Assembly: GCA_031292055.1 (NCBI GenBank)
Contig: JARLHV010000008.1
Span: forward strand, 38,257 to 102,256
DNA from: Desulfosporosinus sp.
GTDB lineage: Bacteria; Bacillota; Desulfitobacteriia; Desulfitobacteriales; Desulfitobacteriaceae
Reading direction: 5' to 3'
DNA: 64,000 nucleotides
Shown here: piece after piece, positions 48,648-53,109 of the stretch
Numbering within the stretch: the stretch's first letter is position 1
Layout of the letters: the number at the start of each line of letters is the position of its first letter
Translations under genes and position numbers: made by a program
Notes under the pieces: generated by a model
Told to the model about the DNA's origin: nothing
The model's database searches: none
What the model saw: only the letters and a program-made list of their open reading frames with translations

Positions 48648-50891
48648 ATGCCAGAAAAGACCAATAGAATTGGTGATAATTTAGTGCGGTTAGGATATAT
48701 CACCCAACAGCAACTGGATATTGCAATAGAAAAGCAAACCGAAAATGGAGGACTGATTGGAGAGCTATTGGTCGATAATGGCTTTATAGCTCAACCAGAT
48801 CTGACAGATTATATTACGAACAGTCAGTTCTCAAAACTTGGTGAACGCTTGATTCAGGTCAAGGCAATAACTCCTCAACAACTTAAAAAAGCAATACTAT
48901 ATCAAGAAAAAAATGGAGGACGCTTAGGTGACATTCTTATTTCACTTGGTTTTATCGCAAAAGAAGTCTTAACAAAATTCTTAGCAGCTAACCGCAAAAC
49001 GAAACTCCCGCTTGGAGAAATGTTGCTTTTAGAAAATGAAATCACAAAAGAACAATTAGATCAGGCCCTCCTCATGCAGAAAAAGAGTGGAGGGCGTTTA
49101 GGCGATATTATGTTGTTTTTAAAATATATTACACCTGAAAGACTTTACCACTATTTAGCAATTCAAAGTGAAATCGGAAGAATAGGTAAAGATTTTAATT
49201 TTAAAAATCTAGTCAAACTTCCTTATGAAATAGCGCTAAAAAATAATGCGATCATCATCAACTCCCGGCATGATTCGTATTTAGTCGCTGTAAATGAAAT
49301 TTTAACTGAGGACTCTAGAAAAGAAATACAATCTTATTTAGACAAGCCGATGGAACCAGTCTTAGCGACTATGATTGAGATAGAAAACTATTGGGACATT
49401 GTGTACAGTCATAAACAATCGGAAGAAAGTGTTTTTAAATTATTTGAGGAGCAATATGAAAACTCAGCGATTATTACGTTCGTAAAAACTCAACGTATGG
49501 CATTGATCGCAGTTGTCCTTTTCATTATTATTCTCTTAATAGCCAATTATAAAATTGGGCTCGTTCTTGTCAATGTCTATGTTCAGATAATCTATGCTAT
49601 TATGACAATTTTGAAATTGTATATTGTTTATAAAGGAGCATTTAATAATAGACAGCTAAGATTTTCCGATGCTGAACTAGCAGAAATCGATGAGAAACTT
49701 TTGCCGATCTATACAATTCTAGTACCTGTCTATAAAGAAAAGGATGTCATAAAGCAGCTGATTTACAATATTCAAAACCTTGATTATCCGCACTATAAAT
49801 TGGATGTATGCCTACTCCTTGAAGAAGATGATGTTGAAACAATCGAGGCCGTCAGAGAGATGAATCTTCCCCATTATTATTCCATCATAATTGTCCCTAA
49901 ATCTCACCCCCAAACCAAACCTAAGGCTTGTAATTATGGGCTGATTAGAGCGAGAGGAAAATATGTCGTAATTTATGATGCAGAAGACCGACCTGAGTCC
50001 GATCAATTGAAAAAGGTATATCTTTCTTTTGAGAAATTAACGGACAGCTATGTCTGTATACAAAGCAAACTCAATTATTATAATAGTAATCAAAATTGTC
50101 TCACCCGACTCTTCACGCAAGAGTATAGTATGTGGTTCGAATTGCTGCTGGTTGGGATCATGCAAACAGCAACTCCCATCCCCTTAGGTGGGACATCCAA
50201 TCATTTCAAAATAGATTTTTTGCGAGAAGTTGGCGCTTGGGATCCCTTTAATGTTACTGAAGATGCTGATCTTGGGGTAAGGTTATTTAAGAAAGGCTAT
50301 AAAACTGCGATCGTGGATTCTCGTACTTGGGAGGAAGCGAATTCTGACCTTATAAACTGGATCAGACAGAGGTCACGCTGGATTAAAGGCTATATGCAGA
50401 CCTGGCTCGTGCATATGCGGCACCCTGTTCAGTTATATAAGGCTTGTGGCTTTAAAGGTTTTTTTGGATATCAGGCGATGGTACTGGGAACGCCCTTATT
50501 ACCACTAGTTAATCCAATTTTCTGGGTGTTGATACTATTATGGTACTCAACCAAAGCAGCATGGATTAGTTCCTTATTTCCAGGTATGCTTTATTATGTC
50601 GCTTGCTTTCAGTTGATATTTGGTAATTTTATCTTTACCTATACTAATGCTGTGGGAATGTATTGGGTTATTCGAGATTGCTCAATGAAGAATAAGCAGC
50701 CTTTCTCCTATGGATTAATAAAATATGCCCTATTATCGCCCTTATATTGGTTTTTAATGAGTATCGCAGCTTATAAGGCATTAATACAATTATTGTTTAA
50801 ACCTTCTTTCTGGGAAAAAACTACGCATGGTCTAACCTCAGAACATCACGATACCTTTTATACTGGCAATAATATATCAAAACCAATGTAA
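48648..50891 (+). CDS. GT2 processive glycosyltransferase with three N-terminal MshEN/GspE_N-type repeats
   Basis: N-terminal RIGDNLVRLGYITQQQLDIAIEKQ-TENGG-LIGELL... repeated three times. GT2 core YDAEDRPESDQ, TEDADLGVRLFKKGYK, IRQRSRWIKGYMQTW; multiple TMs; SD AAGGAGGA. Confidence 0.9.
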   Translation: MPEKTNRIGDNLVRLGYITQQQLDIAIEKQTENGGLIGELLVDNGFIAQPDLTDYITNSQFSKLGERLIQVKAITPQQLKKAILYQEKNGGRLGDILISLGFIAKEVLTKFLAANRKTKLPLGEMLLLENEITKEQLDQALLMQKKSGGRLGDIMLFLKYITPERLYHYLAIQSEIGRIGKDFNFKNLVKLPYEIALKNNAIIINSRHDSYLVAVNEILTEDSRKEIQSYLDKPMEPVLATMIEIENYWDIVYSHKQSEESVFKLFEEQYENSAIITFVKTQRMALIAVVLFIIILLIANYKIGLVLVNVYVQIIYAIMTILKLYIVYKGAFNNRQLRFSDAELAEIDEKLLPIYTILVPVYKEKDVIKQLIYNIQNLDYPHYKLDVCLLLEEDDVETIEAVREMNLPHYYSIIIVPKSHPQTKPKACNYGLIRARGKYVVIYDAEDRPESDQLKKVYLSFEKLTDSYVCIQSKLNYYNSNQNCLTRLFTQEYSMWFELLLVGIMQTATPIPLGGTSNHFKIDFLREVGAWDPFNVTEDADLGVRLFKKGYKTAIVDSRTWEEANSDLINWIRQRSRWIKGYMQTWLVHMRHPVQLYKACGFKGFFGYQAMVLGTPLLPLVNPIFWVLILLWYSTKAAWISSLFPGMLYYVACFQLIFGNFIFTYTNAVGMYWVIRDCSMKNKQPFSYGLIKYALLSPLYWFLMSIAAYKALIQLLFKPSFWEKTTHGLTSEHHDTFYTGNNISKPM

Positions 50892-50910
50892 TCTTTAAGG
50901 GGAGATTTTT

Positions 50911-53109
50911 ATGAAAAAACTTTTGACGTTTGTGATAGCTCTTTTTTATGTGATTACACTGTTGCTGCCTAGTGTTGCTTTTGCCGGTCAAACGAAGACT
51001 ATGTCTACTACGCCCAATAGCATTATTTTATTTCAGGAAGATCAAAAATTTAGCCTTCCTAATAATGAAGTATCCTATTGGTTCACTATTCCCAAAGGCA
51101 CTGAGCTTGGTGATTGCAATCTTAATCTGGATCTTACTTACTCCGGGACGTTGATTGACAATCATACGAATCTAAGTGTTCTTATCAATGACTCTCCGGT
51201 CGATACAAAGTGGCTTAATGATCTTAAAATGACAACAAGTTGGTGGAAGGTCACTATTCCGGCAACCTTGCTTAAGGTAGATGCCATCAACGAAATTAAG
51301 ATTCAGAGCAATCAACGCTCAATTCTGGGTGATTGTGCGGATATCGATAATACTAGTAATTGGATGGTCATTCATAAAGATACGTTTATGGATGTAACGA
51401 TGAAAAAATATCCAGATGTGTTATTGTCGAATTTTTTTCCGATTTATGGGGACAATCTGTTGAATAAATATGCGATATCGGACGACTTTGTTTTGCCGAA
51501 AAAAGCAGACAATAATTCTATTTCCTCACTCCTTAAATTGTCTTCAGCGCTCGGTGCAATCGATAAGGACAAAAATGATTTGAATTACAAGGTTAGCTTA
51601 GGCAGCAGTGATGATCAGTCTTTTAAAAATAAAATATTTTTAGGGCCAATCAGTGAATGGTCCAACAGTTCACAGCTTAGCTTGCCTGGCCAAGAACTTG
51701 GGCAGGCACAAGGTTTTATTTCCATGCGTGGTCAAGCGGGTCAGGGTGCAATGACAATGCCAACAACAGCTAATGATATTACGCTTTTTAACACTTTGAT
51801 TACTGGCAATAATCAAGCGGGCATGAACAAGGCTGTAAACTTTTTAGCCAGCCAACAACTGATGAATCAAGTTAAAAAGAATTCGCTTGTTATTAATTCA
51901 GATATCGATTTACAGCGCACACCGTTCGTAGTAAAAGAGGATGGGCTGTATAATTTTTCTGATTTTGGATATGGGAATATCAATCTCGCAGGAGCGTTTC
52001 ATCAGAAAACATATTTAACGTTTGTCCAACCCCGTGGTATTCAAAGTGCTAACGGTTCTTATCTTAATATCAAATTTAATCATTCTAAAATTTTAGTTTC
52101 TGATCGCTCAATTATGACGGTATATATTAATGGCATTGCTACCAACAGTGAGAAGCTATCAGCAGCTAATGCCGAAGAGGGTACCTTGAAGGTGATTATC
52201 CCGGCAGCGGCTTTGAAGGCCAATGTGATTAATGTTGGAATCGAGTGCTATAACTACTTAGGCGTGATTGATTGTTCGAAAAACTACGACGAAAGTGCCT
52301 GGACGGCGATTAGCTCAGATTCTGAAATTTGTTTATTACCAGGAAACTCGGTCCTTCAGCCCGATTTGACGTTATTTCCGTATTTCTATACCAAGCAGAA
52401 TAAAGACGTGCCCCATGTCGTTCTCGGATCGCCGGATTATTTGAATACTTCAATGTTGGAGACCGCTTCCTTAATCGCAACTCGGGCAGGTCAGAATACG
52501 GGTGAAACTCTTAATTGGGATACAATTAACTCTAATAAGGAGTTAACAAGTGAACAAAAGGGCCTGGATATGGTATATCTGGGGTCTTATACCAACATAA
52601 ATCTTCCTCAGAATATTAAAAATCAATTATTTGTTGTCCCATCGGGAGATGGAACCTTTAGTATTAAGCCAGGCTTGCAGATAGAGCCGGAAACACTTCA
52701 AGACAAGGTCTTGTTTCAGGTCGTAAGATCTCCTTGGGATGCGACCAAGAGGTTATATGTCGTCATGTATGACAAGGACAATAACCTTCAAATATTGAAA
52801 AAAGTCCTGAGCGAGGGTGATCTTCTCAACAAAATGACCGGACAGATAGCCGTGGTTGATTCTGATAGTGAAATTCATAACTTCACCTATGATGAAAACG
52901 TAATTGTAGGACCCCCTAAAACATTAAAGGATAGAATTCAAGCCATTGAAAAAATAACCCATTTTCCTTGGTGGTTATTGTTAATTTTTATCATTGCAAT
53001 TAGACTGGGAATAATAGCCCTGATTAGATTGAAAGAAAGCAAAAATGAATTTGAAAATATAGGCAAAAAAATGAAAGACCAAGAAGGATTTACAGATGAT
53101 GAGCAATAA
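50911..53109 (+). CDS. BcsB-like cellulose-synthase-subunit family protein
   Basis: Signal peptide; EVSYWFTIPKGTELGDCNLNLDLTYSGTLIDNHTNLSVLINDSPVDTKWLNDLK; C-terminal single TM WWLLLIFIIAIRLGIIALIRL. Confidence 0.85.
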   Translation: MKKLLTFVIALFYVITLLLPSVAFAGQTKTMSTTPNSIILFQEDQKFSLPNNEVSYWFTIPKGTELGDCNLNLDLTYSGTLIDNHTNLSVLINDSPVDTKWLNDLKMTTSWWKVTIPATLLKVDAINEIKIQSNQRSILGDCADIDNTSNWMVIHKDTFMDVTMKKYPDVLLSNFFPIYGDNLLNKYAISDDFVLPKKADNNSISSLLKLSSALGAIDKDKNDLNYKVSLGSSDDQSFKNKIFLGPISEWSNSSQLSLPGQELGQAQGFISMRGQAGQGAMTMPTTANDITLFNTLITGNNQAGMNKAVNFLASQQLMNQVKKNSLVINSDIDLQRTPFVVKEDGLYNFSDFGYGNINLAGAFHQKTYLTFVQPRGIQSANGSYLNIKFNHSKILVSDRSIMTVYINGIATNSEKLSAANAEEGTLKVIIPAAALKANVINVGIECYNYLGVIDCSKNYDESAWTAISSDSEICLLPGNSVLQPDLTLFPYFYTKQNKDVPHVVLGSPDYLNTSMLETASLIATRAGQNTGETLNWDTINSNKELTSEQKGLDMVYLGSYTNINLPQNIKNQLFVVPSGDGTFSIKPGLQIEPETLQDKVLFQVVRSPWDATKRLYVVMYDKDNNLQILKKVLSEGDLLNKMTGQIAVVDSDSEIHNFTYDENVIVGPPKTLKDRIQAIEKITHFPWWLLLIFIIAIRLGIIALIRLKESKNEFENIGKKMKDQEGFTDDEQ

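What the first reader, a model, noticed from the sequence alone, without database searches (positions are those of the whole stretch)
48648..53109. Cellulose-synthase-like GT2/BcsB pair with three tandem MshEN (c-di-GMP-type) repeats instead of PilZ
Seen: the GT2 begins with RIGDNLVRLGYITQQQLDIAIEKQ-TENGG-LIGELLVDNGFIAQPDLTDYI..., then KLGERLIQVKAITPQQLKKAILYQ-EKNGG-RLGDILISLGFIAKEVLTKFLAAN, then PLGEMLLLENEITKEQLDQALLMQ-KKSGG-RLGDIMLFLKYITPERLYHYLAIQ. These are three copies of a 24-residue motif / 5-residue spacer / 24-residue motif architecture (about 48666-49167). It is followed by a GT2 core (DAED, TED, QRSRW) and a separate BcsB-like protein. Established: MshEN domains of secretion ATPases bind c-di-GMP through paired 24-residue motifs with a 5-residue spacer, while classical BcsA uses a C-terminal PilZ domain. 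I see no PilZ RxxxR/DxSxxG in this protein. Inference: an exopolysaccharide synthase allosterically gated by c-di-GMP through an N-terminal MshEN array, next to a Tad pilus. This is a strong candidate for an under-described system.
Basis: partly seen in the sequence, partly recalled or inferred. Interest (0 to 1): 0.78.

Follow-up and report, generated by a model that had tools for sequence, protein, structure and literature searches.

The report
Polysaccharide synthase with triple c-di-GMP sensor
A spore-forming Clostridia bacterium carries a cellulose-synthase-like enzyme with three stacked sensor modules for the signal molecule c-di-GMP at its front end, of which only the last is a complete binding site; the enzyme type has known relatives, but the unequal triple array and its conserved partner genes are undescribed in the papers I could search.

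Summary
The gene at 48648-50891 encodes three tandem 53-residue MshEN_N units, an MshEN_C subdomain, and a membrane GT2 core with DAED, TED and QRSRW but no PilZ. It is followed after 19 bases by a true BcsB (Foldseek to E. coli BcsB, E=7e-40). The interpretation needs three corrections. (1) The units are not equal. Across 113 three-unit relatives, unit 3 keeps both Gly3 and both Gln24 in 113/113. Unit 2 has lost its second Gln (2% kept). Unit 1 has lost the same Gln (0%) and the second-half Arg. I expect one strong site and two weak or silent ones. (2) GT2+MshEN is not a new kind: NfrB is experimentally c-di-GMP-activated, and XagB and Mariprofundus Sfz1/Sfz2 (BcsB + MshEN-GT2) share the N-terminal order. 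(3) The meaningful partners are not the Tad pilus 20 kb away but a GT-C-like protein, a polyprenyl-phosphate-sugar synthase and ManC. New comparative evidence for c-di-GMP as ligand: 34/34 homologues with an intact site lie in GGDEF-encoding genomes, whereas 23/35 with a degenerate or undetected site lie in genomes with none (phylogenetically clumped). Verdict: real, a new variant of a known kind. Ligand binding and polymer identity are untested.

The parts
48648..50891 (+). MshENx3-GT2 synthase, 747 aa
   Evidence: NF053729 x3 8.8e-47; PF13632/PF13641 GT2; AlphaFold2 pLDDT 85.2
48666..48824 (+). MshEN_N unit 1 (residues 7-59): both Gly3 kept, Gln24 of second half replaced by Ser, Arg1 of second half replaced by Leu; predicted weak site or structural
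48834..48992 (+). MshEN_N unit 2 (residues 63-115): complete except Gln24 of second half (Asn); predicted weakened site
49008..49166 (+). MshEN_N unit 3 (residues 121-173): all 12 tested contact positions present; predicted main c-di-GMP site
49176..49364 (+). MshEN_C alpha/beta subdomain (residues about 177-239), then a long linker helix 242-268
   Evidence: PF05157 residues 202-269 of the 759-aa ORF; secondary structure
49710..50381 (+). GT2 catalytic core (residues about 355-578: DAED, TED, QRSRW), flanked by membrane helices
50911..53109 (+). BcsB co-polymerase, 732 aa, signal helix and C-terminal membrane helix
   Evidence: PF03170 1.5e-38; Foldseek 9fmt 7e-40; HMM to BcsB chains 7e-9
47036..48610 (+). 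GT-C/PMT_2-like membrane glycosyltransferase, conserved partner
   Evidence: beside the GT2 in 10/10 three-unit loci and most two-unit loci; weak PF13231, relative in L102 1.1e-9
45632..47023 (+). ManC-like mannose-1-phosphate guanylyltransferase/isomerase (GDP-mannose supply)
   Evidence: TIGR01479 1.4e-58 (below that model's equivalog cut-off); recurrent neighbour
55133..56131 (+). polyprenyl-phosphate sugar synthase-like GT2 (PgfS/ArnC-like)
   Evidence: NF047588 4.9e-66, PRK10714 7.5e-44, both below equivalog cut-offs; similar genes at relatives

Best explanation
This is a processive inner-membrane polysaccharide synthase allosterically switched by c-di-GMP through its N-terminal MshEN array, with BcsB as extracytoplasmic co-polymerase. 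Unit 3, next in sequence to MshEN_C and the GT2 core, is the main site. Binding there should release the GT2 core from an inhibited state, as PilZ does in BcsA and as MshEN is thought to do in NfrB. Units 1 and 2 are weaker sites, or spacers that tune the response. The polymer is then probably decorated outside the membrane by the GT-C protein using a polyprenyl-phosphate-linked sugar, plausibly mannose supplied through ManC. Shown here: domain architecture, predicted folds, unequal conservation, gene neighbourhood, co-distribution with GGDEF. Inferred: ligand binding, activation, decoration, sugar identity.
For: Three MshEN units, 8.8e-47. Unit 3 keeps both Gly3 and both Gln24 in 113/113 three-unit proteins. 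Model folds as expected; GT2 part resembles hyaluronan synthase and BcsA; BcsB fold 7e-40. The genome has 20 GGDEF and 6 EAL hits, one other MshEN protein and one PilZ protein. Intact sites occur only in GGDEF-encoding genomes: 34/34, against 12/35 for degenerate or undetected sites. Conserved GT-C / prenyl-P GT / ManC neighbours. Precedent: NfrB binds c-di-GMP (Kd 1 uM) and phage N4 infection needs both its MshEN and GT residues (PMC8669469).
Against: No binding or activity data exist for this protein, and I found none for any N-terminal-MshEN synthase. PilF GSPII-A shows that an MshEN domain can fail to bind through capping and subdomain contacts even with restored consensus residues (PMC12002112), so sequence alone does not prove binding. 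The GGDEF association is not significant on independent pairs (few contrasts). GT-C assignment is weak by Pfam. The position of the array relative to the catalytic core was not examined.
Confidence: 0.7

Rival explanations
1. [quoted passage not shown]
For: Gly3 is kept in 99-100% of all six half-sites of three-unit proteins, although non-binding XpsE lost it (PMC5013675). Units 1 and 2 are of the two-Gly, one-Gln type, which is the commonest sole unit (25 of 51) in one-unit homologues, and every homologue whose best unit is of that type lies in a GGDEF genome. In PilF GSPII-B a single Gln-to-Glu change weakens binding but does not abolish it, and Leu at position 1 is tolerated (PMC11731258, PMC12207366).
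Against: The lost Gln is replaced by various unrelated residues, so that contact is not maintained. PilF GSPII-A needed both Gln for measurable binding (PMC12002112), though it started with neither. Unit 1 is absent from many relatives.
Confidence: 0.35
2. Only unit 3 binds; units 1 and 2 are structural, for example for oligomerising the synthase or docking a partner such as a diguanylate cyclase.
For: Fixed, position-specific decay in units 1 and 2; PilF has one of three MshEN domains silent (PMC12002112); three units plus BcsB form a single clade; NfrB docks DgcJ (PMC8669469).
Against: Near-complete retention of Gly3 and of the first Gln in both units is not explained by a purely structural role.
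Confidence: 0.45
3. The array no longer senses c-di-GMP and is a vestigial or protein-interaction module, as in Bacteroidota relatives.
For: Bacteroidota homologues keep the GT2 and a corresponding N-terminal region without recognisable contact residues, in genomes almost all without GGDEF.
Against: The window protein retains an intact unit 3 and its genome has 20 GGDEF hits.
Confidence: 0.1

Closest known systems
XagB (Xanthomonas xagABC[D]) and Sfz2/Sfz1 (Mariprofundus stalk cluster)
   Same: Same domain order, MshEN (T2SSE_N) then GT2; Sfz2 is adjacent to a BcsB-like protein; the GT2 domains belong to one broad family (PMC8250860, PMC3609779)
   Different: One or two MshEN units instead of three; about 36-40% identity; I found no demonstration of c-di-GMP binding for them; the Sfz paper read the N-terminal domain as EpsE-like with a possible, questioned translocation role
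NfrB of Escherichia coli
   Same: GT2 fused to MshEN, experimentally c-di-GMP-dependent EPS synthase (PMC8669469, PMC8669472); an nfr cluster with a BcsB homologue is reported in A. xylosoxidans
   Different: MshEN is C-terminal and single; the wider system has an outer-membrane protein, NfrA
BcsA-BcsB cellulose synthase
   Same: Processive GT2 plus BcsB, c-di-GMP control
   Different: PilZ is C-terminal in BcsA; here no PilZ, an N-terminal MshEN array, and GGTSNHF in the core
Listeria Pss synthase (PssC GT2, PssD BcsB, PssE receptor)
   Same: Bacillota GT2+BcsB EPS under c-di-GMP control (PMC4125290)
   Different: The receptor is a separate degenerate GGDEF protein
PilF of Thermus thermophilus
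   Same: Three tandem MshEN/GSPII modules of unequal binding ability (PMC11731258, PMC12002112)
   Different: Full N+C GSPII domains on a pilus ATPase; here two bare N subdomains plus one N+C

Membership tests
MshEN c-di-GMP receptor domain | two 24-residue motifs with 5-residue spacer (53-residue unit) | tested here: met
   three units, NF053729 8.8e-47; 53-residue spacing
MshEN c-di-GMP receptor domain | Gly3, Leu triad and Gln24 in both halves of at least one unit | tested here: met
   unit 3 complete; units 1 and 2 not complete
MshEN c-di-GMP receptor domain | binds c-di-GMP | not testable with these tools
   only indirect: GGDEF co-distribution
processive GT2 exopolysaccharide synthase | D, TED, QxxRW motifs and flanking membrane helices | tested here: met
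BcsA cellulose synthase | C-terminal PilZ domain and CelA/BcsA equivalog score | tested here: not met
   no PilZ; TIGR03030 48 bits vs cut-off 699
BcsB | BcsB fold with C-terminal membrane anchor | tested here: met
   PF03170 1.5e-38; Foldseek 7e-40
NfrB equivalog | GT2 N-terminal, MshEN C-terminal, equivalog cut-off | tested here: not met
   PRK11234 58.9 bits vs 1170; reversed domain order
XagB/Sfz2-type synthase (MshEN then GT2) | N-terminal MshEN followed by homologous GT2 core | tested here: met
   Xanthomonas and Mariprofundus loci L046, L075, L062, L074 recovered with this order

The most novel reading that the evidence does not exclude
The array is a graded three-site c-di-GMP sensor on one synthase: a strong site fixed next to the catalytic core plus two weakened sites, with unit number (1, 2, 3 or 4 in the family) setting the response threshold or steepness of polymer synthesis, coupled to extracytoplasmic decoration by a conserved GT-C module.
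Probability: 0.3. Interest if true: 0.7.

Novelty: new variant of a known kind. Interest (0 to 1): 0.5.

Why it matters
In this genome the synthase carries three of only four MshEN hits, against 20 GGDEF domains and one PilZ protein, so it is a likely major output of c-di-GMP signalling. The family offers a natural series from zero to four sensor units on one enzyme, with lineages where sensor residues and diguanylate cyclases are both absent, so the open question of how MshEN drives a glycosyltransferase, and what unit number does, becomes directly testable. It also defines a recurring Bacillota EPS module (ManC, polyprenyl-P sugar synthase, GT-C, MshEN-GT2, with or without BcsB) that I did not find described.

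Tried and rejected
c-di-GMP riboswitch or other Rfam element in the window: none at gathering threshold. Three equal repeats: rejected by per-position conservation. Tad pilus as functional partner: rejected as unsupported, the Tad genes being about 20 kb away. Unit number and BcsB as repeatedly co-evolving traits: rejected, the three-unit plus BcsB group is a single clade, so one event. Loss of Arg at position 1 as proof of lost binding: rejected, since Leu is used in PilF GSPII-B at 6 nM (PMC11731258). PDB fold search of the whole synthase matched mainly the GT2 part, so it gave no separate test of the array. GGDEF association as a phylogenetically controlled test: too few independent contrasts, though none went the other way. 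BcsB counts across 301 phylum genomes (17 with BcsB) and synthase counts (4 of 301) show patchy distribution but were too sparse for co-occurrence statistics.

Full report
What is there. The gene at 48648-50891 (ATG start, 747 aa) holds the three repeats exactly as quoted. NCBIfam model NF053729 for the MshE-type c-di-GMP motif matches three stretches at 8.8e-47, and a Pfam MshEN match covers the C-terminal subdomain after the third repeat. AlphaFold2 on a 38-sequence alignment (pLDDT 85) gives three four-helix bundles, an alpha/beta subdomain, a long helix, two probable membrane helices, the GT2 core and further membrane helices. Foldseek places the synthase with hyaluronan synthases and BcsA. 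The next gene, 19 bases on, is BcsB by Pfam (1.5e-38) and by structure (7e-40). There is no PilZ in the synthase.

The units are not equal. In the MshE crystal structure each half-site uses Arg1, Leu2, Gly3, two Leu and Gln24 (PMC5013675). In the window protein unit 3 has all 12 tested positions (Arg, Lys or Pro being accepted at position 1; its first half has Pro), unit 2 lacks only the second Gln24, and unit 1 lacks the second Gln24 and the second Arg1. This is a fixed family pattern. Of 113 three-unit proteins, unit 3 keeps both Gly3 and both Gln24 in 113; unit 2 keeps the second Gln in 2%, unit 1 in 0%, while Gly3 is kept in 99-100% of all half-sites. In Thermus PilF, which also has three MshEN modules, Leu at position 1 still allows 6 nM binding, one Gln-to-Glu change weakens binding to the high-nanomolar range and two abolish it, and one of the three modules is silent (PMC11731258, PMC12207366, PMC12002112). 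I therefore expect one strong site and two weak or silent ones.

Is c-di-GMP the ligand? The genome has 20 GGDEF hits, 6 EAL hits, one PilZ protein and one other MshEN protein. As a comparative test I scored 69 homologues from the genome-contig collection. Those with at least one unit holding both Gly3 and at least one Gln24 lie in genomes with GGDEF domains in 34 of 34 cases; of 35 with a degenerate or undetected site, 23 genomes have no GGDEF at all (Fisher 9e-10). The contrast is clumped, mainly in Bacteroidota and a few Actinomycetota. On phylogenetically independent pairs the direction was never contrary, but there were too few pairs for significance. Some genomes are MAGs, so absences there may reflect incompleteness. 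I treat this as supportive, not decisive.

Relatives and neighbours. Close relatives fall in two clades. Three units plus an adjacent BcsB is one clade (support 100/97: Desulforamulus, Clostridium, Oscillospiraceae and metagenome contigs; all 10 loci have BcsB). Two-unit forms (Paenibacillaceae, Sporolactobacillus, several genomes of the window's own genus) mostly lack BcsB; it is adjacent at 3 of about 20. One-unit forms occur in Chloroflexota, Aquificota, Synergistota and Xanthomonas, two-unit forms with BcsB in Mariprofundus, and one protein has four units. A GT-C/PMT_2-like gene lies beside the synthase in 10 of 10 three-unit loci and is near it in most two-unit loci, with a PgfS/ArnC-like polyprenyl-phosphate-sugar synthase and ManC recurring. 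Three loci with a short GT2 without MshEN plus BcsB, two of them from the same genus as the window, show none of these partners. In several same-genus genomes the two-unit cassette sits beside the same sigK gene, which suggests that alternative synthase cassettes occupy one chromosomal site.

What is known. GT2 fused to MshEN is established in NfrB (PMC8669469, PMC8669472), noted generally in 2016 (PMC5013675), and the N-terminal order with a BcsB-like neighbour is described in Mariprofundus as Sfz2/Sfz1, although its authors read the N-terminal domain as EpsE-like with a possible translocation function (PMC8250860). [quoted passage not shown] What I did not find described is the tandem three-unit array, its fixed unequal decay, the GGDEF co-distribution, and the GT-C/ManC module. 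My literature search covers only open-licence PubMed Central papers.

Mechanism and limits. The most likely working is release of GT2 inhibition when c-di-GMP binds unit 3, polymer threading past BcsB, and decoration outside by the GT-C protein. Binding, activation, polymer sugar and decoration are inferred. The host is a spore-forming Clostridia member (sigK in the window; named relatives of the synthase and BcsB include Desulforamulus, Desulfosporosinus and Desulfitobacterium); the genus was not determined.

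Noticed in passing
window 47036-48610 and relatives L005, L006, L007, L101, L102, L103, L105, L110: A GT-C/PMT_2-like membrane protein is the constant neighbour of MshEN-GT2 synthases, with a PgfS/ArnC-like GT2 and ManC, in both the BcsB and the BcsB-free clade.
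   Followed up: partly
window 57983-58735; L102, L103, L125, L126: The sigK gene flanks this locus and also flanks the two-unit, BcsB-free cassette in genomes of the same genus (91-96% identical SigK), suggesting alternative EPS synthase cassettes at one chromosomal site.
   Followed up: partly
P0097 (808 aa): A relative carries four MshEN units, so unit number in this family runs from none detectable to four.
   Followed up: partly
L032, L040, L055, L065 and other Bacteroidota loci: Homologous synthases in Bacteroidota keep the GT2 and a corresponding N-terminal region but no recognisable c-di-GMP contact residues, in genomes that almost all lack GGDEF domains; often beside BcsB.
   Followed up: yes
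L009 5701-8037 and 11198-13525: Paenibacillus macquariensis has two MshEN-GT2 synthase genes in one locus.
   Followed up: no
P0108, P0115, P0117: Some relatives of about 790-840 aa carry an extra N-terminal stretch of roughly 100 residues or more with no assigned function before the MshEN units.
   Followed up: no
window 19291-20568 and 22179-23390: Two very similar response-regulator/ParA-type (CpaE-like) genes flank the RcpC gene of the Tad cluster, looking like a duplication.
   Followed up: no
window 38413-41370: An acetolactate-synthase-like TPP enzyme is followed by a NeuB/PseI-like synthase, which may be a nonulosonic-acid or related sugar pathway in the same surface-glycan region.
   Followed up: no
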